Positions 372 through 9,370 of a DNA stretch of 32,544 nt are shown here, piece by piece. Every line of letters starts with the position of its first letter. Positions within the stretch are counted from its first letter, which is position 1. Under the pieces are notes generated by a model. That model was not told the origin of the DNA. It ran no database searches and worked only from the letters and a program-made list of their open reading frames with translations. Origin of the DNA: an uncultured beta proteobacterium (lineage in GTDB: Bacteria; Pseudomonadota; Gammaproteobacteria; Burkholderiales; Burkholderiaceae_C); NCBI GenBank assembly GCA_903828665.1, contig CAIKMZ010000010.1, forward strand, positions 1 through 32,544, given 5' to 3'. A program made the translations under genes and the position numbers.

Positions 372-439
372 GGAAGGAAGGAAGGACGAGGAAGGAAGGA
401 AGGAAGGAAGGAAGGAAGGAAGGAAGGAAGGAAGGAAGG
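372..439. repeat. GGAA tetranucleotide microsatellite
   Basis: GGAA units run uninterrupted from 390 to 439 (12.5 units). A shorter run of almost four units lies at 372-386, and the two are separated by the three bases CGA. Tetranucleotide tracts of this length are prone to slipped-strand mispairing and in several bacteria act as phase-variable switches. Here the tract is not inside a recognisable gene, so a switching role is only a possibility. Confidence 0.9.
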
Positions 440-488
440 CTTTAGATGTTGCTGCGTGGGCATTCGTGCGTGGCGCGAGTGCGCTTGG
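439..488. repeat. 50-bp direct repeat, copy 2
   Basis: Second copy of the repeat at 285-334. It begins with the last base of the GGAA tract, and 46 of 50 bases are identical to copy 1. Confidence 0.85.
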
Positions 489-679: not shown

Positions 680-1342
680 ATGAAAACATCATCAAAGCAA
701 ACCAGAAAAACAAAAATATGGGTAAATATTGTCAAGTGCAAATCGTTGATTCCACTTCTGTTATTTTGCTTTTCCAGCAACATTTTTGCTGAAAAAGTAT
801 ATATGGGTATAGCAAAAAATGAAACTGATTACAGCGCACTTGTGACATTAATAGACAGGCAATGCTCTAATCCTGAGGGAAATGCAATGTACGTCAGCGG
901 TAAGAACGGCGGCGTCGGTTGCTGGACTGCGGATGGAGACAAAGTGAAGTTGGAAATATTTGAAAATGGGAAGACACTCTATTTTGATAAAAATATCTTT
1001 TCACTAATCAACGATACAAATGACAAATCATCAATAAGCGATGTCAAGCGACAAAATACAAAGGTGATCCTAAACTGCATAGCTGATGCTTGGATTGGTG
1101 ATGTTGATGTTGAAAGAGATGCCTCTGGTGCGTTAGTGAAAGTTGTCATCAATGGCGAAGTCGTTACGGCGATTGAAAAATCAAACGCAATCAACTTTGC
1201 TTATAACAAAATGGATATTAGTCTAAGCACGTTAACTGGAATGTTCAGTTACGAAACTTCGACAATCTTTAAGTTGCTAAGTGCCAACGTAAGGCGTGGA
1301 ACAGGACGTTGCAATCTTGTTCAAAACGTAAAAAAGTTCTGA
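680..1342 (+). CDS. Hypothetical secreted protein (220 aa)
   Basis: The ATG at 680 gives a protein whose first ~37 residues look like a Sec signal peptide: a Lys/Arg-rich start, then a hydrophobic stretch (SLIPLLLFCFSSNIFA) with likely cleavage after FA and a mature start at EKVYMG. The frame is open upstream to a TTG at 620, but that would put a long polar extension before the signal, so 680 is preferred. The mature part has three cysteines and no motif I recognise; a pattern such as GGVGCWTADGDKVKLEI suggests a small beta-rich exported domain. It is the first of four co-directional genes, ending 12 bases before the Sel1-repeat gene, so it is probably in an operon with it. Base composition is AT-rich relative to the right half of the window. 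Confidence 0.6.
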   Translation: MKTSSKQTRKTKIWVNIVKCKSLIPLLLFCFSSNIFAEKVYMGIAKNETDYSALVTLIDRQCSNPEGNAMYVSGKNGGVGCWTADGDKVKLEIFENGKTLYFDKNIFSLINDTNDKSSISDVKRQNTKVILNCIADAWIGDVDVERDASGALVKVVINGEVVTAIEKSNAINFAYNKMDISLSTLTGMFSYETSTIFKLLSANVRRGTGRCNLVQNVKKF

Positions 1343-1354
1343 TGGAATGTAGAG

Positions 1355-2275
1355 ATGAGTAAAGGTATATTTACACTAATCGTGACACTTTCTTTATACG
1401 CGAGTGCAGCGTTGGCAGGAGACTTGGAAGATGGTTCGTCGGCTTTGGCAAAAAAAGACTATGTAACAGCACTTAAAAAATATATGAGTGCAGCTACAAA
1501 TGACGGGAACGCAAACGCACAACTCCAAATAGGAAATATTTATCTATCGGGGCTTGGTGTTAAAGAAAACTACGTCGAAGCAGCGAAGTGGTACAGGATG
1601 GCTGCTGAACAGGGAAATGCTTCTGCGCAGGTCAAGATTGGATTGAGATACACAAGCGGAGAAGGCGTCACACAAAATCACGTAGAAGCGGCGCGCTGGT
1701 ACAAGTTGGCTGCCGAACAGGGAAATCTTTTTGCTCAGTATGCACTCGCAACTGAGTATCAACGAGGACGAGGTTTAGCTCAAGATTACGCCGAAGCGGT
1801 TCGATGGTACAAGTTGGCTGCTGCACAGGGAGATATTGATGCGAAGTACAACATAGGAAATATGTACAGCAAAGGACAAGGTGTCGTACAAGATTATTCG
1901 GAAGCGATAAGTTGGTACAAGTTGGCTGCCGAAAAGGGAAATGCATTAGCTCAATACGCACTGGGCTTGGCGTACAAGCAAGGACAAGGTGTCGTGCAAG
2001 ATTACGCCGAAGCAGTTCGATGGTACAAGTTGGCTGCTGCACAGGGAAATAGTATTGCGCAAAACAATCTCGGTTCTATGTATAGTGAAGGACAGGGTGT
2101 CGCACAAGACTACACACGAGCACATATGTGGTACAACTTGGCAGCGATAAAAGGTGGTGCGCGTACAACAAAAAACCGCGACACTATCGCAGCGAAAATG
2201 ACGCCACAACAAATCGCTGAAGCACAAAAACTTGCGCACGAATGTCAGGCAAGAAACTTCAAAAAATGTGATTGA
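1355..2275 (+). CDS. Secreted Sel1-repeat (tetratricopeptide-like) protein, 306 aa
   Basis: The N-terminus is a clear Sec signal peptide (MSKGIFTLIVTLSLYASAALA, cleavage before GDLEDG). From about residue 50 to 270 there are six full 36-residue Sel1 repeats with the usual signature (AQ..IG..Y..G.GV..DY.EA..WYKLAA.QGN) plus a degenerate one at the start. The protein ends in a short tail with two cysteines (HECQARNFKKC). Sel1 proteins are alpha-solenoid scaffolds for protein-protein contacts; an exported one probably acts in the periplasm or at the cell surface. Several repeats are almost identical at DNA level, which suggests recent internal duplication. It lies between the secreted unknown gene and a small basic protein gene, in the same direction and with short gaps. 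The partner of this scaffold cannot be deduced from the sequence. Confidence 0.9.
   Translation: MSKGIFTLIVTLSLYASAALAGDLEDGSSALAKKDYVTALKKYMSAATNDGNANAQLQIGNIYLSGLGVKENYVEAAKWYRMAAEQGNASAQVKIGLRYTSGEGVTQNHVEAARWYKLAAEQGNLFAQYALATEYQRGRGLAQDYAEAVRWYKLAAAQGDIDAKYNIGNMYSKGQGVVQDYSEAISWYKLAAEKGNALAQYALGLAYKQGQGVVQDYAEAVRWYKLAAAQGNSIAQNNLGSMYSEGQGVAQDYTRAHMWYNLAAIKGGARTTKNRDTIAAKMTPQQIAEAQKLAHECQARNFKKCD
1781..2047. repeat. Near-identical internal repeats in the Sel1 gene
   Basis: Bases 1781-1831 and 1997-2047 match at 50 of 51 positions and lie exactly 216 bases apart, which is two Sel1 units of 108 bases. A second pair one unit apart shares AAGGACAAGGTGTCGT. Such repeats can recombine and change the number of Sel1 units. 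Confidence 0.8.
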
Positions 2276-2297
2276 ACTTTAACAACGGAGAATGGCA

Positions 2298-2630
2298 ATG
2301 GCAACATCATCAAAGTCAAGCAGTAAACCAAAAGCAACAGCGAAGAGCCCACGCAAAAAACTTTCAATCGCAGAGCAACGAGCGAAGATTGAAGCAGCAA
2401 GAGCGAAGTTGTCGGCGCAAGAGGCAAAACTTGCCGTAAACGATCTGCGCGAATACATAACCACGCTGAAAGTTCCTACCGTAGGAAATCTGTTTACTTT
2501 CGCACTGAACAACAGAAAAGATGTGAAGAAGATTGATGTGCTGCGAACACTTGCTGAAATCGGTGGATTAAAAGTGACGATCACTGAGAAAGTAAAGACA
2601 CCGCGCAAGGCAAAAACCGCTGCGAAGTAA
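2298..2630 (+). CDS. Small basic Lys/Ala-rich hypothetical protein (110 aa)
   Basis: Two in-frame ATGs lie at 2292 and 2298. The GGAG at 2287-2290 is one base from the first and seven from the second, so 2298 is preferred. The protein has a Ser/Lys/Ala-rich disordered start, a charged helical part (SIAEQRAKIEAARAKLSAQEAKL) likely to form a coiled coil, and a compact C-terminal segment (VPTVGNLFTFALNN onward) ending in a basic tail (TPRKAKTAAK). The strong positive charge is compatible with nucleic-acid binding, but I recognise no domain. It lies 22 bases after the Sel1 gene and 30 before the adhesin-E-like gene. Unlike those neighbours it has no signal peptide. Confidence 0.65.
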   Translation: MATSSKSSSKPKATAKSPRKKLSIAEQRAKIEAARAKLSAQEAKLAVNDLREYITTLKVPTVGNLFTFALNNRKDVKKIDVLRTLAEIGGLKVTITEKVKTPRKAKTAAK

Positions 2631-2660
2631 CAACAAGCCATTTGTGATAACAGAGGACGT

Positions 2661-3053
2661 ATGAGAACTTCAAAATATTTGCTTGTTATCACAATGGTCA
2701 TTATTTCATCATTGGCTCGCGCTGAGTGGCAGGAAGTTGCGACAACGAACGATCAATCACATTTCTTCGTAGACTGGAGCACGTTGAAGGTAAATGGGAG
2801 CGTACGTCGTGCTTGGACACTTCGAAGTTTTGTCAATATCAGCCCGAAATCACAACCCAGCTCTATAACGTCAGTAACCGAGTTTGAGTGTGTCAATGAT
2901 AAGATAAGAGAGATGCAAGTGACTGGATACGAGAAACAGATGGCTAAAGGCAAAAGTGGTGAGTTATCGAGTGACAGCGTCGGAAAGTGGTATTTTCCAG
3001 AGCCGCAAGCGCCGATGTTTCAAGTTCTAAAGGCTGTCTGCAACAAACGCTAA
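2661..3053 (+). CDS. Secreted surface-adhesin-E-like protein (130 aa)
   Basis: A Sec signal peptide (MRTSKYLLVITMVIISSLARA) precedes a mature domain that starts EWQEVATTNDQSHFFVDWSTL. The pattern W-x5-T-x7-F-V-D-W-x2-L, followed by R-x-A-W-T-L, an F-E-C segment and a final V-C near the end, matches my recollection of the small surface-adhesin-E-like family often found in beta- and gammaproteobacteria. The two cysteines (FEC and AVC) could form the disulphide of that fold. The ATG is preceded by AGAGGA five or so bases upstream. The stop codon overlaps the stop of the convergent recombinase gene by three bases. Exported role; ligand unknown. Confidence 0.65.
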   Translation: MRTSKYLLVITMVIISSLARAEWQEVATTNDQSHFFVDWSTLKVNGSVRRAWTLRSFVNISPKSQPSSITSVTEFECVNDKIREMQVTGYEKQMAKGKSGELSSDSVGKWYFPEPQAPMFQVLKAVCNKR

Positions 3054-3649
3054 ATCATCTCAACAGCGTTACGCATCATTGAATGATTGACTTCAATGTA
3101 TTTCTGCGTCACAGCCATTGACGAATGTCCCGCGAGTTCCATCAACACACGCACAGACACGCCTTTGTTTGCCAAGTTTGTAATGAAGCCGCGACGACCG
3201 CTGTGACTTGACGCTCCGTCGATCCCGACACGCGCATAAAGTGTTGTAAAGAACTGAGCAAGTGTGTTCGCAGAAAAACCTCGATGGCAGTTCTTTTGAT
3301 TTGCGAACAGAGCGCGATTTGTATCAGTCAGCGTCACAGCAAGCAAATCCTTCAACTTGAAGCGCACAGACAGATAGTTGTGGATTTCTTCTTGTATCTT
3401 CTTTGACAGCATCACCGTGCGACCCTTGTTGCCCTTCGTTTGTTCTGCTTTCAAATGTATTTCGTCGCGTATCTTCCCGTCTGCCGTTAGCACATCGCAA
3501 AGACGCACAGCAGCGACTTCTCCGACGCGCATCCCGCAGTTCGTTGTCATCAAAAAGATTGCGCGATTGCGCGATGCGTGTTTGTTTGCTGCGATGTGAA
3601 GCAGAACACGGCGCGTGTCTTTCTCACTTAAAACTTTTGCTTGTGCCAT
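3050..3649 (-). CDS. Short tyrosine recombinase, catalytic domain only (199 aa)
   Basis: The product has the conserved residues of the phage-integrase/XerD catalytic domain: Arg41 in CGMRVGE, basic residues around 67-77 (KAEQTKGNKGR), His149 and Arg152 in SHSGRRG, His175 in AGHSS and the nucleophile Tyr184 in QKYIEVN. It lacks the usual N-terminal core-binding domain, since the catalytic fold begins within the first 30 residues. The start is the ATG at 3647-3649, preceded by AGGAG at seven bases; the frame continues upstream by eight codons without a better start. It is convergent with the secreted-protein genes and downstream of the polymerase-like gene on the same strand. It probably catalyses DNA integration, inversion or dimer resolution for this island. 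All catalytic residues are present, so it is likely active. Confidence 0.9.
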   Translation of the reverse strand: MAQAKVLSEKDTRRVLLHIAANKHASRNRAIFLMTTNCGMRVGEVAAVRLCDVLTADGKIRDEIHLKAEQTKGNKGRTVMLSKKIQEEIHNYLSVRFKLKDLLAVTLTDTNRALFANQKNCHRGFSANTLAQFFTTLYARVGIDGASSHSGRRGFITNLANKGVSVRVLMELAGHSSMAVTQKYIEVNHSMMRNAVEMI

Positions 3650-3805
3650 TTGATTTCTCCTGAAAATAAACACTTGATATGTATTTATTGTGAACCCTTT
3701 AGTTCAGTCAGAAAAGCCTTTTTTGAGAAAAAAGATTACCTATGGAAATCAACAACTTGCGCGAAAACTACACGCTTCTATAGTTATATGTAGTTTCAAG
3801 ATTGG

Positions 3806-5362
3806 TCAAATGTTTTTTGATTTGTAGTTCTTTGCGCGTTCACTTTCCGCAGCAATGTGCTGTTTGTGTCTTTCCTCTTCGTGCTTCACTTCATCACTGA
3901 CGACTTCGTATCGCTCGTATTTCGTTTCACCCAATCTCCAATACTCAATGCCCGTTGTGTCGCGCATCTTGTATTCAATCTTTTCTCTGTCGTAATCGCT
4001 CAACTTGCTGCGAATGACGATTGCGTCGTGGACATTTGCCAGCACTTCGCGTTGAAGTATTCCGAGTTCCTTCCTTACAATATCCATCACAATCGTTTCC
4101 GCGTGTTGATACTGATAAGCAACGACCTTGCTCTTGCTTGTTCTTCCACTCTTCGTTTGAAGTTCCTTGTAAGTTAAAAGCAATGGATTTGCTTTGATTC
4201 CCGTTTCAGATATGTAAGTGTCAAGTGCTTTCTGTTCATCGCGGAACTTCACAACTAACTTGCTGTCCGCAAAGCGTTTGCGTTCATCGGGATTCTTCAA
4301 AATATCAACAATCGCGGGATTCGTCCAGTTTCCGCTGTCGTCCTTCCATCCACGGACCGTCAGTCGCGCTCCAAAACTTAACGCAGTGATCGCTTCCTTA
4401 ACTAACTTCACTTGATGATCGGGTTTGCTGTTGCTGTTCGCGCGAAATGTCGCAGCGATTACCGTTTTTGTGAAGTCGTCTTTGCGCTCCAGGTATTGAA
4501 GCATCGCAGAAAACTCTTGCTTGAATGTTCCCTTCGTCTTCATCTTCGCGTAGCAATCCTTCGCAAATCCCATCTTCCACGAGATTGCGCTTGATTTGAT
4601 GTCGTATTCATAGCAGTTCCCGAGCATCGCCTTTCGCAATGTCTTATGAACACCTTGAACACTGATCCCTTCGTAGTAAGTGCGACCGAAGAAACTCGGT
4701 TTCATCTTCTGCGGGAATATCCCATTAGTGAACTGAGCAACGCGCAGAATGATTTGAGCGTGTCGCAGATTGGTATCAATCTGTTGCTTCGTCATCAATG
4801 TTGCTTCATTCAGCAGCCAACGGATATAACTCTTCACGGATTCAATATCAATCTCGGCGATGTGATATTTCTCCAGAACCTGTGCGTCATCAAGTTGCGC
4901 TAACTCTGGCAACAGACGATTGACGAACTCTTTATCCGTTTCCGTTTCTACATTGAGAAAGTCTTCAAGTTCCGCTGCCGATTTCATCTTCAAATGACTT
5001 GCGCTCGTATCGTCAGTCATCGTTACAAGATCGGTAAGTCTCATAACAGAAACAAGACCACTGATATTTGTTCCGACTTCTACATCTTCAAGGAGGGATA
5101 GATTGTTTTGTTCCAACCACGCTTGAACTCGTATCAAGTTTGGTCCGATCTGTCCGCCTTCGGCTCCTAACTTATCTTTCGGTATGCTGAAGAACTTCAT
5201 CTTGCGCTCGTATTCGGTTTGTCCTTTGTTGAGCGATTCGGTCAGTTTCTGTTCCAGAACTCGTTTGTATTTGGCAAGATGATTTCTCGCGCAGTTTGGT
5301 GGTTTCGGGAACGCTTCGCGCATCTTCTCTAAAACTACTGCTTTAATGGTGAGTTGGATCAT
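3806..5362 (-). CDS. Divergent polymerase-like protein (family A DNA polymerase / T7-type RNA polymerase palm), 518 aa
   Basis: I see three motifs in the order and spacing of single-subunit polymerases. A motif-A-like strand is CYEYDIKSSAISW with Asp254. A motif-B-like helix is VKEAITALSFGA, where Lys322 and Phe330-Gly331 keep the K-x7-[YF]-G spacing of PolA (KAINFGLIYG) and T7 RNA polymerase (KRSVMTLAYG). A motif-C-like hairpin is LANVHDAIVI with His445-Asp446, as in PolA VHDE and T7 IHDS. Between B and C, QYQHAETIVMDIV resembles the Q-x3-A-[DE]-x-I helix of PolA. The Arg normally four residues before the motif-B Lys is not present (Val318). The first ~230 residues and the Lys/Glu-rich tail match nothing I know, and no exonuclease motifs are seen. 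Context (two recombinases, AT-rich island) suggests a replication or repair enzyme of a mobile element. A non-polymerase function remains possible. Confidence 0.55.
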   Translation of the reverse strand: MIQLTIKAVVLEKMREAFPKPPNCARNHLAKYKRVLEQKLTESLNKGQTEYERKMKFFSIPKDKLGAEGGQIGPNLIRVQAWLEQNNLSLLEDVEVGTNISGLVSVMRLTDLVTMTDDTSASHLKMKSAAELEDFLNVETETDKEFVNRLLPELAQLDDAQVLEKYHIAEIDIESVKSYIRWLLNEATLMTKQQIDTNLRHAQIILRVAQFTNGIFPQKMKPSFFGRTYYEGISVQGVHKTLRKAMLGNCYEYDIKSSAISWKMGFAKDCYAKMKTKGTFKQEFSAMLQYLERKDDFTKTVIAATFRANSNSKPDHQVKLVKEAITALSFGARLTVRGWKDDSGNWTNPAIVDILKNPDERKRFADSKLVVKFRDEQKALDTYISETGIKANPLLLTYKELQTKSGRTSKSKVVAYQYQHAETIVMDIVRKELGILQREVLANVHDAIVIRSKLSDYDREKIEYKMRDTTGIEYWRLGETKYERYEVVSDEVKHEEERHKQHIAAESERAKNYKSKNI

Positions 5363-5706: not shown

Positions 5707-6150
5707 ATGGCAACAATATTGAGCGCATTTAAGATGGTAAATGCTGTGCGTCAAGTTAAGATGGATTCAACGCAGTTTCGTCGTCAAAAGATGGCAAAGA
5801 AGATTGACGAACAAGTCAAGTTGGCAATCGCAATGCGTGATGGACAGACTTGCGTCATCAAGCGTCTGCGCTCAATCACAGACAAAGCGACTGGACTGGT
5901 CAGTCAAATGGAAGTGGCAAGGCGTGTCAATGGCTGGTGGTGGACAGAAGGCAATCGGATTCTGCTTCAACTGAAATACGGCACTCGCGTTCTGTTGCTC
6001 AACGGAAAGGACAAGAATACGATTGAAGTCGGCAGCGGCGATGAACTTATCAAAGTGCTTGAACTTGTGAAAACAAGCGTCAACAACGGCGAGCTTGACG
6101 CTGCTATTGAAGTAGCAAGTGTGAAGGTGCGCGAACGCTTTAAGAAGTAG
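5707..6150 (+). CDS. DUF6641-like protein (147 aa)
   Basis: The protein starts MATILSAFKMVNAVRQ, has a charged helix with an RRQKMAKKIDEQVKLAIA segment, then VNGWWWTEGNRILLQLKYG followed by KDKNTIEVGSGDELIKVLELVKTSVNNGELD. This pattern (short helical start, a WWW/WW block before a beta strand ending in YG, then an EVG..DEL and GELD tail) matches what I remember of the DUF6641 family, found in phages and mobile elements of betaproteobacteria. Its function is not known. It is divergent from the polymerase-like unit and followed 42 bases later by another unknown gene in the same direction. The family call rests on memory of the pattern. Confidence 0.65.
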   Translation: MATILSAFKMVNAVRQVKMDSTQFRRQKMAKKIDEQVKLAIAMRDGQTCVIKRLRSITDKATGLVSQMEVARRVNGWWWTEGNRILLQLKYGTRVLLLNGKDKNTIEVGSGDELIKVLELVKTSVNNGELDAAIEVASVKVRERFKK

Positions 6151-6192: not shown

Positions 6193-6540
6193 ATGCTCAT
6201 CAACGAAATCACCAGTTCACTTCCACTCTTCATTGCGACGGTTCGCGTGAAAACGGCAAGTTCAACTTGGACACTGAAAACAGCAATACACGCTGAAGGT
6301 GTGGCACAAGCGCGGCAGCTGCTCACGGCGATCTACGGCGAGGGAAGTGTGATGTCGCTGTCGCTTAGCGAAAGTTTCGGAACTCAAACAATTGACTCAG
6401 GTCAACTACGCATAAAGTCAATGTCCGATCAGAAAGCGTTGCTATCAAAGAATATGGAACGCGAACGCGCAAGGCAGAAGTTGGTGAAAGCGCAGCAAGC
6501 GGTTCAGAAGGCAAATGCTGCGAAAACTTCGGTGAACTGA
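6193..6540 (+). CDS. Hypothetical protein (115 aa) with C-terminal coiled coil
   Basis: The ATG at 6193 gives MLINEITSSLPLFIATVRVKTASSTWTLKTAIHAEGVAQARQLL as a probable alpha/beta N-terminal domain, then a Ser-rich middle, and a C-terminal charged helix rich in Ala, Lys and Gln (residues ~80-115) likely to be a coiled coil. No good ribosome binding site is visible right before the ATG. It follows the DUF6641-like gene and its stop is four bases from the stop of the convergent integrase. I recognise no family. Association with the neighbouring genes suggests an island function rather than a host one. Confidence 0.6.
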   Translation: MLINEITSSLPLFIATVRVKTASSTWTLKTAIHAEGVAQARQLLTAIYGEGSVMSLSLSESFGTQTIDSGQLRIKSMSDQKALLSKNMERERARQKLVKAQQAVQKANAAKTSVN

Positions 6541-6544
6541 TCGC

Positions 6545-7918
6545 TTATTCTTTCGCTTCTTCTATTTCTGGTGTGTAGAGATATTTCGTATCAACTTTTC
6601 CAGGTGCTTCTAACAACTTTCTGCTTTCATCGCCGCGAAGTTGCTTGTGCGCTTTCATAACATCTAAGTGCGAGTAATGCGCTTCAATCATCCCGACACT
6701 CGTTCCCATTTGCGTTGCGAGTGTGTGTATTGCGATCTTGTCGTGTTCAAGTGATAGCGTTGCGTAAGTGTGGCGAAGGCTGTAAAGAACGCGCTTTTGT
6801 TTGTCGCGCGGATCAATCTGTAGTTTGTGTCTTACGAGGTAGTTATCAAATAGTTTCGGAAAACTTGTTGGTGTTTTCAGTTTCGCTTTCTTGTTCGTTT
6901 TAACATCTTCTTCGCTGAGAACTTCGCGGTAAAGAAAAATCTTCTCTTCGCTGCCAAGTTCAACCATTTCAACTAATGACTTTCCGTAGTTGCGTTTGGC
7001 AATCGCATCAAACGCTTCATACGATGGAAGTCGTCCCATTGAAATGCGCTTCTTTGTTTTGTTCTGCGGAATCTCAATAAACACGGTGCGATGTGCGTTT
7101 ATTTGAACAATCTCTTCAACATTTCCTTCGCCATCGTCGGAGAAAACACCAGTTTTTATTGCTTCTGGATACATCTCAAGTGTGATGTGCGTCCATTTCA
7201 AACTCAGCAACTCTTTTCCTGGTCTTGCGCCTGTGTCGAGCAAGACAGCAACATAGTCTTTCATCAGTTGTCGGATTGGCAGACTATCGGCACGCGCTTC
7301 TGCGATCCATTCATCGAGGTGCGCTATCAACGCTCTTGCTTCGCGCAAAGTGAAGTCGGGGCGTCTTACGCTGTCTTTCGCTTTCGCGTCGAGCGTGGGG
7401 CGATTGCCTTTGACGATGTAGCCTTTTTCTTCTGCGACTTCTAACACTCGGTTGAGCGCGGCGTTGTGATTGAGCAATGTGCTGTGCTTCGGCGCGGCTC
7501 CCATCTTGTTCGTGCGCCATTTGTCGAACTCTTCAAGCACGGTGTAGTCAATGCTATCGACGCGATATTTGCCGAAGAACGGGATCAGATAGTTGTCGAT
7601 GGTGACTTTGTATTCTTTGAAACTGACCTTGCCTTTGCCTTGCGCTGTGTCGTCGTCCATCTTTCGCACTGCTAAGTGGGCGATGTCGCGGAAGTAGCGA
7701 GTGATCGGCGCAGCGTTCATCTTCTTGCGAACATTCGCTTCAATGAGGATTTCGTGCGCTCTCTTCGAGGCATCAGCAAGATTGCGCTCGTTCGTGCTGT
7801 TGCGCTGCCACTTTCCGTCGATCTGAAAGCGACACTGCCACACGGTGCTTCGAGGACGCAAAAAGACGACAAGTTGCCTTGGGATCAGTGCGTGTGTAGT
7901 GGTCTTTTTTTCGCTCAT
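6545..7918 (-). CDS. Phage-type tyrosine integrase, full length (457 aa)
   Basis: The product has an N-terminal DNA-binding part, a SAM-like core-binding domain (about residues 75-165) and a C-terminal catalytic domain with Arg232 in DTGARPGKE, Arg382-His383 in YSLRHTYAT and the nucleophile Tyr415 in EAHYSHL. The usual first His of HxxR is Tyr and the second His of GHS is not evident (MGTSV), both tolerated in phage integrases. The start is the ATG at 7916-7918 (MSEKKTTTH). A longer frame reaches 8086, but its extra 56 codons include the insertion-sequence end (a repeated RFRLIPRW peptide) and are not part of the gene. It likely integrates and excises the island. A 17-bp-spaced promoter-like pair lies just upstream. 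The gene is convergent with the 115-aa unknown gene. Confidence 0.9.
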   Translation of the reverse strand: MSEKKTTTHALIPRQLVVFLRPRSTVWQCRFQIDGKWQRNSTNERNLADASKRAHEILIEANVRKKMNAAPITRYFRDIAHLAVRKMDDDTAQGKGKVSFKEYKVTIDNYLIPFFGKYRVDSIDYTVLEEFDKWRTNKMGAAPKHSTLLNHNAALNRVLEVAEEKGYIVKGNRPTLDAKAKDSVRRPDFTLREARALIAHLDEWIAEARADSLPIRQLMKDYVAVLLDTGARPGKELLSLKWTHITLEMYPEAIKTGVFSDDGEGNVEEIVQINAHRTVFIEIPQNKTKKRISMGRLPSYEAFDAIAKRNYGKSLVEMVELGSEEKIFLYREVLSEEDVKTNKKAKLKTPTSFPKLFDNYLVRHKLQIDPRDKQKRVLYSLRHTYATLSLEHDKIAIHTLATQMGTSVGMIEAHYSHLDVMKAHKQLRGDESRKLLEAPGKVDTKYLYTPEIEEAKE

Positions 7919-7945
7919 CGCGTCATTTTTCTGCTTTGTTGTCTC

Positions 7946-7974
7946 AGCATACAGACGACAAGAGAAAAGGACAA
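7946..7974 (-). promoter_or_regulatory. Probable sigma70 promoter of the integrase
   Basis: On the minus strand TTGTCC (7974-7969) and TATGCT (7951-7946) are separated by 17 bases and lie 28 bases before the integrase start. The -35 box is only about a dozen bases from the first insertion-sequence repeat, so the insertion appears to leave this promoter intact. Confidence 0.4.
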
Positions 7975-7986
7975 GTGACAGCCTTA

Positions 7987-8044
7987 TCCAACGAGGTATG
8001 AGCCTGAAGCGGTGTCCGTGATTCCAACGAGGTATGAGCCTGAA
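7987..8044. repeat. Tandem left terminal repeat of the insertion sequence
   Basis: A 22-bp sequence containing AGGTATGAGCCTG occurs at 7987-8008 and again, identical, at 8023-8044. The right end has only one matching inverted copy. Confidence 0.85.
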
Positions 8045-8072
8045 CTGCGGGCTTGGGTCGATCATTTCCCAC

Positions 8073-9332
8073 ATGGTGATCGACATGGACGAGACCCGTC
8101 TGCAAACAATTTCGCAACTTCAGTCGTTTTTGGCTGGTACGGCTGAGGTTCAATTTCGTGTTCCCGACACGGACGAGGCCCGCTACGCTCACATCGTGTC
8201 AGTGGCTCAGCGCTTTGGCTATGGCCGCCTGAATCGACCCGACAAGGGCGTGGTGCTGCGCTACTTGATCGCCACCTGCGGCTACGGTCGCGCCCAACTC
8301 ACACGACTGCTGGCACGCGTCCTGGATGGCCAAAACCTGTACAAGCGCTACCGTGCCCCAGCACATGCGTTTGCGCGTCGCTACACCCCGGCTGATGCCC
8401 TGCTGCTGGCCGAGGTGGATCGTGCCCACGGCACGATGTCGGGTCCGGCCACCGTGCATTTGCTCAGACGTGCTTTGCACGTGCATGGGGACACACGCTT
8501 TGAGCGTCTGGCCAACCTGTCGGTGTCGCACCTGTACAACCTGCGTCACAGCGTGACTTACCAGAATCAACGCGTGAGTTTTACCAAGACGCGCCCCGTG
8601 GTCAATGCGATTGGCATTCGGCGTGCCCCACGTCCTGAAGGCCGTCCAGGGTTCATTCGCATCGACTCGGTTCACCAGGGGGATATGGACGGCACCAAGG
8701 GGGTCTATCACATCAACGCAGTCGATATCGTCACCCAGTGGGAGGTGGTGGCCACCTGCGAGCGCATCAGCGAGGCGTATCTGTTGCCGGTGCTCAAAGA
8801 CCTCATCGATCAGTTTCCCTTCGAGATTCTGGGCTTTCACTCCGACAACGGCAGCGAGTACATCAACAAGACGGTGGCCACGCTTTTGGAGAAGATGCGG
8901 GTGGAACAGACCAAGTCGCGCTCACGGCATTCCAATGACAACGCCCTGGCCGAAAGCAAGAACGGCTCGGTGGTCAGAAAGGCCTTCGGCTACAGCCACA
9001 TCCCGCAACGCTTTGCTGCCCACATCAACGTGTTCTGCCGTGATCATCTCAACCCGTACGTCAACCTGCACCGCCCTTGTCTGTTTGCCATGGAGGTCAT
9101 CGACGCCAAGGGCAAGATCCGAAAGACCTACCCACTGGACATGGTGCAAACGCCTTTGGACAAGCTGGCAAGTCTGGCCGGTGTGGACGACTTCTTGCGC
9201 GAGAGCGTCACCATCGCCCAGCTTCAACTGCAAGCAACCGCTCTGAGCGATCTGGACGCCGCCAACGCCCTGAATGTGGCCAGGCTTAAACTGTTCGACT
9301 TGTTCAACCGACGATCCAAACCCGCAGCCTGA
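8073..9332 (+). CDS. IS transposase, rve-type DD(35)E
   Basis: The gene encodes about 419 aa from the ATG at 8073 (alternatives: 8034, which lies within the terminal repeat, and 8085, which has GGTGA upstream). The N-terminal half has helix-turn-helix-like segments (YLIATCGYGRAQLTRLLARV, and LSVSHLYNLRH). The central catalytic core has Asp in FIRIDSVHQGD, Asp in GFHSDNGSEY and Glu in NALAESKNGSV; there are 35 residues between the second Asp and the Glu, the classic DD(35)E arrangement. The frame is intact and all three acidic residues are present, so the transposase is probably functional. It cuts and joins the element ends by the RNase-H-fold mechanism. GC content is like the right part of the window and unlike the island, which shows it arrived separately. 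Confidence 0.9.
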   Translation: MVIDMDETRLQTISQLQSFLAGTAEVQFRVPDTDEARYAHIVSVAQRFGYGRLNRPDKGVVLRYLIATCGYGRAQLTRLLARVLDGQNLYKRYRAPAHAFARRYTPADALLLAEVDRAHGTMSGPATVHLLRRALHVHGDTRFERLANLSVSHLYNLRHSVTYQNQRVSFTKTRPVVNAIGIRRAPRPEGRPGFIRIDSVHQGDMDGTKGVYHINAVDIVTQWEVVATCERISEAYLLPVLKDLIDQFPFEILGFHSDNGSEYINKTVATLLEKMRVEQTKSRSRHSNDNALAESKNGSVVRKAFGYSHIPQRFAAHINVFCRDHLNPYVNLHRPCLFAMEVIDAKGKIRKTYPLDMVQTPLDKLASLAGVDDFLRESVTIAQLQLQATALSDLDAANALNVARLKLFDLFNRRSKPAA

Positions 9333-9357
9333 TTCATCCCGTCAATCCAGCTTCGCC

Positions 9358-9370
9358 CAGGCTCATACCT
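9358..9370. repeat. Right inverted terminal motif of the insertion sequence
   Basis: CAGGCTCATACCT is the exact reverse complement of AGGTATGAGCCTG found twice at the left end. It lies 26 bases after the transposase stop. Confidence 0.8.

What the first reader, a model, noticed from the sequence alone, without database searches (positions are those of the whole stretch)
3806..5362. Divergent single-subunit polymerase in a small integrase-bearing island
The 518-aa protein carries D254 in a motif-A-like strand, K322-x7-F330-G331 in a motif-B-like helix and H445-D446 in a motif-C-like hairpin, plus a Q-x3-A-E-x-I helix before motif C. This order and the motif B spacing are those of family A DNA polymerases and T7-type RNA polymerases. 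The 230-residue N-terminus is unlike either, no 3'-5' exonuclease motifs are seen, and the motif-B Arg is absent. Position 330 is Phe where T7 RNA polymerase has Tyr639 and Klenow Tyr766. It could be an uncharacterised replication, primase-like or transcription enzyme of a mobile element. The motifs are seen in the sequence; the function is inferred.
Basis: partly seen in the sequence, partly recalled or inferred. Interest (0 to 1): 0.8.

Follow-up and report, generated by a model that had tools for sequence, protein, structure and literature searches.

The report
PolA-like polymerase of mobile DNA islands
A bacterial integrating DNA island carries its own very distant cousin of DNA polymerase I, probably used to copy or prime the island's DNA; its kind was described in 2008, but this branch has a different active site and has not been tested.

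Summary
The 518-aa ORF is on the minus strand. It does not match T7 RNA polymerases, a test without power. It is a PolA-like palm polymerase linked by sequence to TV-Pol (Iyer 2008), but lacks the RxxxK arginine and the PolA steric-gate glutamate (0 of 21 each). It sits in an island with a small tyrosine recombinase, DUF6641 and a large integrase. Two sister islands in the same genome lack it and carry a ~190-aa, HUH-like (by eye) protein in that slot. Best reading: the island's own polymerase, possibly primase. Function is inferred; no structure could be predicted.

The parts
3806..5362 (-). PolA-like (TV-Pol-like) polymerase, 518 aa, ATG start
4577..4612 (-). residues 251-262, motif A with D254; Ala at D+5, aligned to the steric-gate Glu of PolA
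4367..4411 (-). residues 318-332, motif B: K322-x7-F330-G331-A332; Val at K-4 (no RxxxK Arg)
4013..4117 (-). residues 416-450, Q419/E422 helix and motif C H445-D446
3050..3673 (-). small stand-alone tyrosine recombinase (PF00589; GTG start 3673, ATG at 3649)
5707..6150 (+). DUF6641 protein (PF20346), 147 aa, transcribed divergently from the polymerase; recurring gene of the island family
6193..6540 (+). conserved 115-aa protein of unknown function (also in L018, L024; profile hits in L080, L019, L094)
6545..8086 (-). large integrase of tyrosine-recombinase type: LRHTYAT...HYSH region seen by eye, Pfam gives only sub-threshold SAM-like hits; true start probably ATG at 7918, the longer frame runs into the IS
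680..3053 (+). four cargo-like genes: 220 aa unknown, 306 aa Sel1 repeats, 112 aa unknown, 130 aa Adhesin_E
7994..9370 (+). insertion sequence with rve-type transposase (ORF 8034-9332; rve hit just below cut-off); end sequence AGGTATGAGCCT at 7994 and 8030, AGGCTCATACCT at 9359-9370; marks the right flank, probably not part of the system
   Evidence: ends read by eye

Best explanation
The gene encodes a PolA-like palm polymerase belonging to, or next to, the TV-Pol polymerases of transposons and viruses. In this island it is the element's own DNA-synthesis enzyme. After the recombinases excise the island, the polymerase would make the first strand, or the primers, on exposed single-stranded element DNA, probably with a host helicase since none was recognised in the island; the copy is then reintegrated or passed on. 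Shown: motif conservation, profile match to PolA, integrative-element context, other proteins in the same slot of sister islands. Inferred: catalytic activity, use on the element's DNA, priming, the role of DUF6641, the nucleotide used.
For: Catalytic positions conserved in 21 of 21 sequences. Family profile against 11 diverse PolA sequences: probability 93.3, E 2.7e-7 (for one comparison), score 64.8, 264 columns, with GR...Q, D254 on the D of DYSQIE, K322 and F330-G331 on the Lys and Tyr-Gly of motif B, Q419 on the Gln of QGTAAD, and VHD in register. Gap-poor core 42.2 against shuffles mean 13.7, sd 1.9, max 22.5, n=150; reversed 16.2. Context: recombinase, DUF6641, integrase. Sister islands of the same genome: L080 has recombinase(-), 193-aa protein(-), DUF6641(+), 116-aa homologue(+), integrase-like(-); L081 has recombinase(-), 189-aa protein(-), DUF6641(+) and, after one more gene, a 398-aa (-) ORF that my integrase profile did not label. 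Relatives on plasmids pW9NP1 (10 bp before annotated repA) and pH8NP1 and in phage records and viral contigs. Precedent: TV-Pols (PMC2579912, whole main text) and the tested CcPol-MP primase-polymerase (PMC7581432, passages).
Against: No Pfam, NCBIfam, PHROG or PDB sequence match worth the name for the window protein or the first profile. Ordinary HMM searches between the family and PolA are weak: best E 0.0034 either way in small sets, 0.13 for the window protein. The profile-profile match depends on diversity: window branch alone (9 sequences) 31.9, E 0.0058; two-sequence middle group E 0.065; 19-member family against 15 similar bacterial PolAs only 30.4, E 0.007. The fold was not predicted. 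The fingers Arg and steric-gate Glu are missing, so activity is not assured. Both Polaromonas plasmids carry a separate Rep. The HUH identity of the slot proteins rests on motifs seen by eye; 2 of 4 have H-x-N in place of H-x-H, and only 1 of 4 has a Pfam Rep hit, sub-threshold, E 0.0045. No helicase or ssDNA-binding protein was recognised among the window proteins scanned; excision was not shown.
Confidence: 0.7

Rival explanations
1. It is a single-subunit RNA polymerase that transcribes the island's genes, T7-like.
For: K-x7-[YF]-G spacing and HD motif fit T7 RNA polymerase too; the best local profile matches to 8 phage RNA polymerases are the HD region and then the GR region. No Glu at D+5; T7-type sequences have Gly there in the 5 of 8 that show DGSC[SN]G.
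Against: Profile score only 21.5 (E 0.19; 26.2, E 0.053 for the 19-member profile) against 64.8 for PolA. This is weak: PolA and T7-type profiles, known kin, also fail to find each other (18.0, E 0.42). The window branch has Phe where the 6 of 8 T7-type sequences that show K-x7-YG have Tyr. Its slot is taken by HUH-like proteins in sister islands.
Confidence: 0.1
2. It is an accessory or defence-related polymerase (repair, or an anti-phage cargo gene) rather than the element's replication enzyme.
For: Neighbours in relatives include restriction systems: type I in L021 and L022, type IIG in L016, type III plus a DrmD-like helicase in L099. The Polaromonas plasmids have their own Rep. DUF6641 islands usually do without it: polymerase in 0 of 18 other DUF6641 stretches.
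Against: In the window the gene sits between recurring genes, not in the cargo zone; restriction operons are also reported around TV-Pol elements (PMC2579912) and in PolA-SSB elements (PMC10061031).
Confidence: 0.15
3. It is a degenerate, catalytically dead palm protein used for DNA binding.
For: Rice 2023 reports palm-only proteins, unlikely to be active, in similar elements (PMC10061031, Results part 1 of 2). Two usual active-site residues are missing here.
Against: Both Asp, the Lys and the hairpin Arg are invariant in 21 of 21.
Confidence: 0.05

Closest known systems
TV-Pol family (Iyer, Abhiman, Aravind 2008, PMC2579912)
   Same: Minimal PolA-like polymerase of mobile elements and viruses, no nuclease, linked to integrases and RM operons; hairpin Arg and two palm Asp. 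In the first 50 kb of Microcystis phage Ma-LMM01 the 19-member family profile hits one of 49 ORFs (E 1.6e-5), a gene beside two transposase genes. The paper names Ma-LMM01 as a TV-Pol carrier; that this is the same gene is my inference.
   Different: RxxxK Arg absent in 21 of 21; no helicase recognised in the window island; a new island context with DUF6641 and two tyrosine-type recombinases.
CcPol-MP / PolA-SSB primases of SCC elements (Bebel 2020, Rice 2023)
   Same: Truncated PolA-type enzyme on an integrative island, small protein gene nearby, RM cargo reported.
   Different: CcPol is annotated as family A and keeps the E710 and F762 equivalents (PMC7581432, passage); here D+5 is Ala and K+4 is Thr. 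Helicase in the operon and serine recombinases there, neither here; partner fold untested.
DNA polymerase I (PF00476)
   Same: GR...Q...R, motifs A, B, C in order and register; the plasmid branch has Tyr-Gly in motif B.
   Different: Not detected by Pfam; no exonuclease domain found; no DYSQIE-type Glu; no RxxxK.
divPolA2 of phages (PMC11348598, passages and one section read), tested with AUR84708 of a Vibrio phage
   Same: GGRMY...QN...R...YDF segment; profile comparison E 0.0024 to the 21-member family against 0.16 to PolA.
   Different: Not significant: HMM search E 0.15 with the 21-member profile, and not among the listed hits of the 19-member one; motif C reads FDE, not HD. That paper suggests a repair or RNA polymerase.

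Membership tests
TV-Pol | Hairpin with absolutely conserved Arg | tested here: met
   R227 in 21 of 21
TV-Pol | Two palm aspartates | tested here: met
   D254 and D446 in 21 of 21
TV-Pol | Fingers RxxxK motif | tested here: not met
   K322 in 21 of 21, Arg at K-4 in 0 of 21, the Microcystis phage MaMV sequence included. Hence filed as a TV-Pol-like variant, not as a plain member
TV-Pol | Two-helix thumb | not testable with these tools
   structure prediction not available
TV-Pol | No nuclease fusion; mobile-element neighbours (integrase, resolvase or transposase) | tested here: met
   no nuclease domain; recombinases
TV-Pol | D5-like helicase fused or adjacent (a subset of the family only) | tested here: not met
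   none among the 9 window proteins scanned
DNA polymerase A (PF00476) | Pfam match over cut-off | tested here: not met
   no such hit for the window protein or the 6 relatives scanned in Pfam; the other members were not scanned in Pfam
DNA polymerase A (PF00476) | Steric-gate Glu five residues after motif-A Asp | tested here: not met
   0 of 21: Val 8, His 8, Ala 3, Ser 1, Gln 1
PolA-SSB primase (CcPol-MP) | Adjacent OB-fold protein and helicase in an operon | tested here: inconclusive
   DUF6641 is adjacent but divergent and not specific to the polymerase; its fold untested; no helicase recognised
T7-like RNA polymerase | Profile similarity to phage RNA polymerases | tested here: inconclusive
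   score 21.5, E 0.19, but PolA against T7-type also fails
HUH Rep (slot proteins of sister islands) | HUH motif and Rep family match | tested here: inconclusive
   H-x-H in 2 of 4, H-x-N in 2 of 4; Pfam REP_ORF2-G2P below cut-off in 1 of 4; no relevant PDB match and no PHROG of named function

The most novel reading that the evidence does not exclude
A helicase-free mobile island that replaced a rolling-circle HUH initiator by a self-priming PolA-like enzyme. Having lost two sugar-selecting features (no steric-gate Glu; Phe for Tyr in motif B), the enzyme would use ribo- and deoxyribonucleotides alike, so that one protein lays mixed RNA-DNA primers and extends them, with DUF6641 as its single-strand-binding partner.
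Probability: 0.15. Interest if true: 0.75.

Novelty: new variant of a known kind. Interest (0 to 1): 0.5.

Why it matters
It extends the PolA-type polymerases of mobile elements (the CcPol authors knew in 2020 of no other biochemically characterised TV-Pol; PMC7581432, passage) to a branch in islands, plasmids and phages that the annotation sources used here leave unnamed or misname. The missing steric gate and fingers Arg make it a natural test of which residues the family A active site really needs, and the swap with an HUH-like protein in the same genome makes the question of how such islands copy themselves directly testable.

Tried and rejected
Sequence searches of Pfam, PHROGs, NCBIfam and the PDB with the window protein or the first profiles gave nothing useful. 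Weak hits were taken as chance: Helicase_dom4_arc E 1.7 and phosphomevalonate kinase E 1 for the window protein, pepcterm_ATPase E 0.024, and in single relatives DIL E 0.013 and phrog_12951 E 0.0057. tblastn of the window protein in phages and plasmids: no match. Single-protein scans of viral contigs: nothing or the query itself. Class-wide search: own genome only, 1 of 369.

DUF6641 as a dedicated partner (an MP-like SSB) was considered and lowered: 18 other DUF6641 stretches show no polymerase. A PDB profile search with the four HUH-like proteins found nothing relevant; PHROGs gave unknown-function families for two of them. No flanking attachment repeat was recognised: the window's left end is the contig end, and blast of the first 9700 bases against themselves shows no pair at the island's two ends.

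Null models: shuffling all alignment columns, gap columns included, gave 4 of 150 shuffles against PolA with scores of 130-134; these were matches of 4-13 columns at the profile end, which I put down to gap columns. I therefore used the gap-poor core (439 columns) for the null. The diverse PolA set used 5 of the 15 bacterial PolA sequences at hand plus 6 phage ones, some cut. Control profiles gave E 0.035 (DUF6641, 11 columns) to 0.84. Of 10 neighbour proteins scanned in PADLOC 3 had no hit. The neighbour profiles were built from members of these loci, so those members match by construction. Fold search was never used for want of a model.

Full report
Observation. The ORF is on the minus strand, 518 codons, ATG to stop. 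No curated library names it: Pfam, PHROGs, NCBIfam and PDB sequence searches give only chance-level matches, and tblastn of 50,697 phage and 72,556 plasmid records gives none.

Relatives. A relatives search hit 5 of 148 genomes, own included; a family-level profile search 7 of 299, own included; a class-wide search 1 of 369, the own genome only; and one contig titled Rhizobiales MAG (L007) came from the GTDB collection. A chain of searches that does not use the later members leads outward: the window protein finds L006 (E 1.4e-15); profile A1 finds the genes later read in L021, L022, L023 (E 2e-14, 2e-10, 1e-6, each for one genome); the L021 protein finds two Polaromonas plasmids (E 2e-42, 2e-33) and six phage records: three of Microcystis (2e-4 to 4e-4), two of Desulfovibrio type (1e-5) and one of Erwinia (3e-2, not significant alone). 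Viral contigs L025, L026, L037, L038 were added by pattern scans. The alignment used from then on has 21 members; the contig-end fragment L004/L024 was left out, and L026 is partial.

Motifs. Across 21 members R227, Q236, D254, K322, A332, E422, H445 and D446 do not vary; G331 and Q419 vary once each, in the Erwinia phage protein; G226 twice. Position 330 is Phe in 12, Tyr in 8, Asn in 1. The residue five after D254, the steric-gate position of PolA, is never Glu: Val 8, His 8, Ala 3, Ser 1, Gln 1. The residue four before K322 is never Arg. The placing of L029 and L031 in the alignment is the least sure.

Relation to known polymerases. With 15 similar bacterial PolA sequences the two best local profile matches of the 19-member family were GR...LQN...R.A (E 0.007) and the VHD region (E 0.074), both in the right register; the 21-member family gave E 0.00014 against the same set. 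With a diverse set of 11 (5 of those 15 plus 6 phage enzymes) one alignment of 264 columns covers residues 171-477, E 2.7e-7, probability 93.3; these E-values are for single comparisons. Without the phage members L029-L031 it is 4.4e-6; the window's branch alone (9) gives 0.0058, the plasmid branch (7) 0.00026, the three phage proteins 0.00092, L016 with L017 0.065. The gap-poor core scores 42.2; 150 column shuffles reach at most 22.5, the reversed core 16.2. Unrelated profiles give E 0.035 or worse. One-sided HMM searches are weak: best 0.0034 in either direction, 0.13 for the window protein. T7-type RNA polymerases (8 sequences) give E 0.19, or 0.053 with the 19-member profile, but PolA and T7-type fail to find each other as well (E 0.42), so this does not exclude an RNA polymerase.

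Island. The low-GC part of the contig holds a small tyrosine recombinase (PF00589, E 4.9e-27), the polymerase, DUF6641 (PF20346, E 9.1e-7), a 115-aa protein, a large integrase (tyrosine type by eye; Pfam only sub-threshold) and cargo (Sel1 repeats, Adhesin_E). Of 18 loci with the polymerase examined (13 from genomes, some cut by contig ends; 5 plasmid or viral) 7 have the small recombinase in the fetched stretch and 6 have DUF6641, all among the 13. A search of 250 genomes of the order for DUF6641 hit 10 genomes with 19 matches, 3 in the own genome. In the 18 stretches around the matches other than the window's the polymerase profile found 0, on ORFs chosen by a simple length rule that can miss genes. 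In L080 (own genome) gene order and strands match the window, with a 193-aa protein where the polymerase would be; in L081 (own genome) the recombinase, a 189-aa protein and DUF6641 match, but the ORF at the integrase position was not labelled by my profile. Similar slot proteins stand in L083 and L093. The four share I-E-G, H-x-H (2 of 4) or H-x-N (2 of 4) and Y-x2-K in the order of HUH Rep motifs (the motif reading is by eye and recalled); Pfam gives one sub-threshold Rep hit, E 0.0045, for L081. Other islands have other proteins there. Replacement of unrelated genes in one place was used as a sign of equal function by Iyer et al. (PMC2579912).

Cargo near the relatives includes restriction systems: type I (L021, L022; L023 by similarity to L021), type IIG (L016), type III with a DrmD-like helicase (L099) (7 of 10 proteins scanned had a hit). 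On plasmid pW9NP1 the polymerase gene ends 10 bp before the annotated repA; the authors class both plasmids by their RepA_C protein, and the passages I saw do not mention the polymerase-like gene (PMC6015842, passages).

Literature. TV-Pols (PMC2579912, whole main text in three parts; no figures or supplement): PolA-like enzymes of transposons and viruses, predicted primase-polymerases, Ma-LMM01 among carriers. CcPol-MP (PMC7581432, passages): tested primase-polymerase that keeps E710 and F762 equivalents and uses dNTPs to prime. PolA-SSB primases (PMC10061031: abstract, introduction, Results part 1 of 2). divPolA1/2 (PMC11348598: passages and one section). A search for DUF6641 returned 0 papers, and the listings showed no title on these islands; this covers only the open-licence library. 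The effect of the steric gate and of Tyr-to-Phe in T7 RNA polymerase is recalled, apart from the CcPol passage.

Verdict. A PolA-like, TV-Pol-related polymerase of integrative islands, plasmids and phages: real, conserved, probably active, most likely serving element replication or priming. The kind is known; this branch, its active-site departures and its island family appear undescribed in what I could search. 

Noticed in passing
L080 (G000:C70) and L081 (G000:C23): Two more DUF6641 islands in the same genome, without the polymerase, with a ~190-aa HUH-like protein in its slot.
   Followed up: partly
L018 1-19001: Array of related islands: DUF6641 and integrase genes occur twice, the small recombinase three times, but the polymerase once.
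   Followed up: partly
L027 6095-7600 (pH8NP1) and L028 37-1653 (pW9NP1): Polymerase relatives on small Polaromonas plasmids, annotated as 'Clp protease N-terminal domain-containing protein' and 'hypothetical protein'.
   Followed up: yes
L105 22746-24218 and L031 2110-3708: phrog_34692 and phrog_30690, both 'unknown function', hold proteins of this wider group; the second is the least sure member.
   Followed up: partly
L030 2185-4467: 760-aa version in a Desulfovibrio-type phage with long N- and C-terminal additions; a weak excisionase-type HTH match (E 0.03) before the polymerase part.
   Followed up: no
window 376-440: Run of GGAA tetranucleotide repeats, with a 50-bp near-repeat (285-334 / 439-488, 92%) on either side.
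   Followed up: no
window 7994-9370: Insertion sequence with rve-type transposase at the right edge of the island; its end sequence occurs twice on the left, 36 bases apart.
   Followed up: no
L038 3687-6698: Polymerase relative beside a ParA-like gene amid phage structural genes (both by eye), as in a phage-plasmid.
   Followed up: no
L085, L086, L091; L018, L089, L092, L095: Other recurring slot proteins of DUF6641 islands: one of 152-177 aa (looks excisionase-like by eye) and one of 120-149 aa.
   Followed up: no
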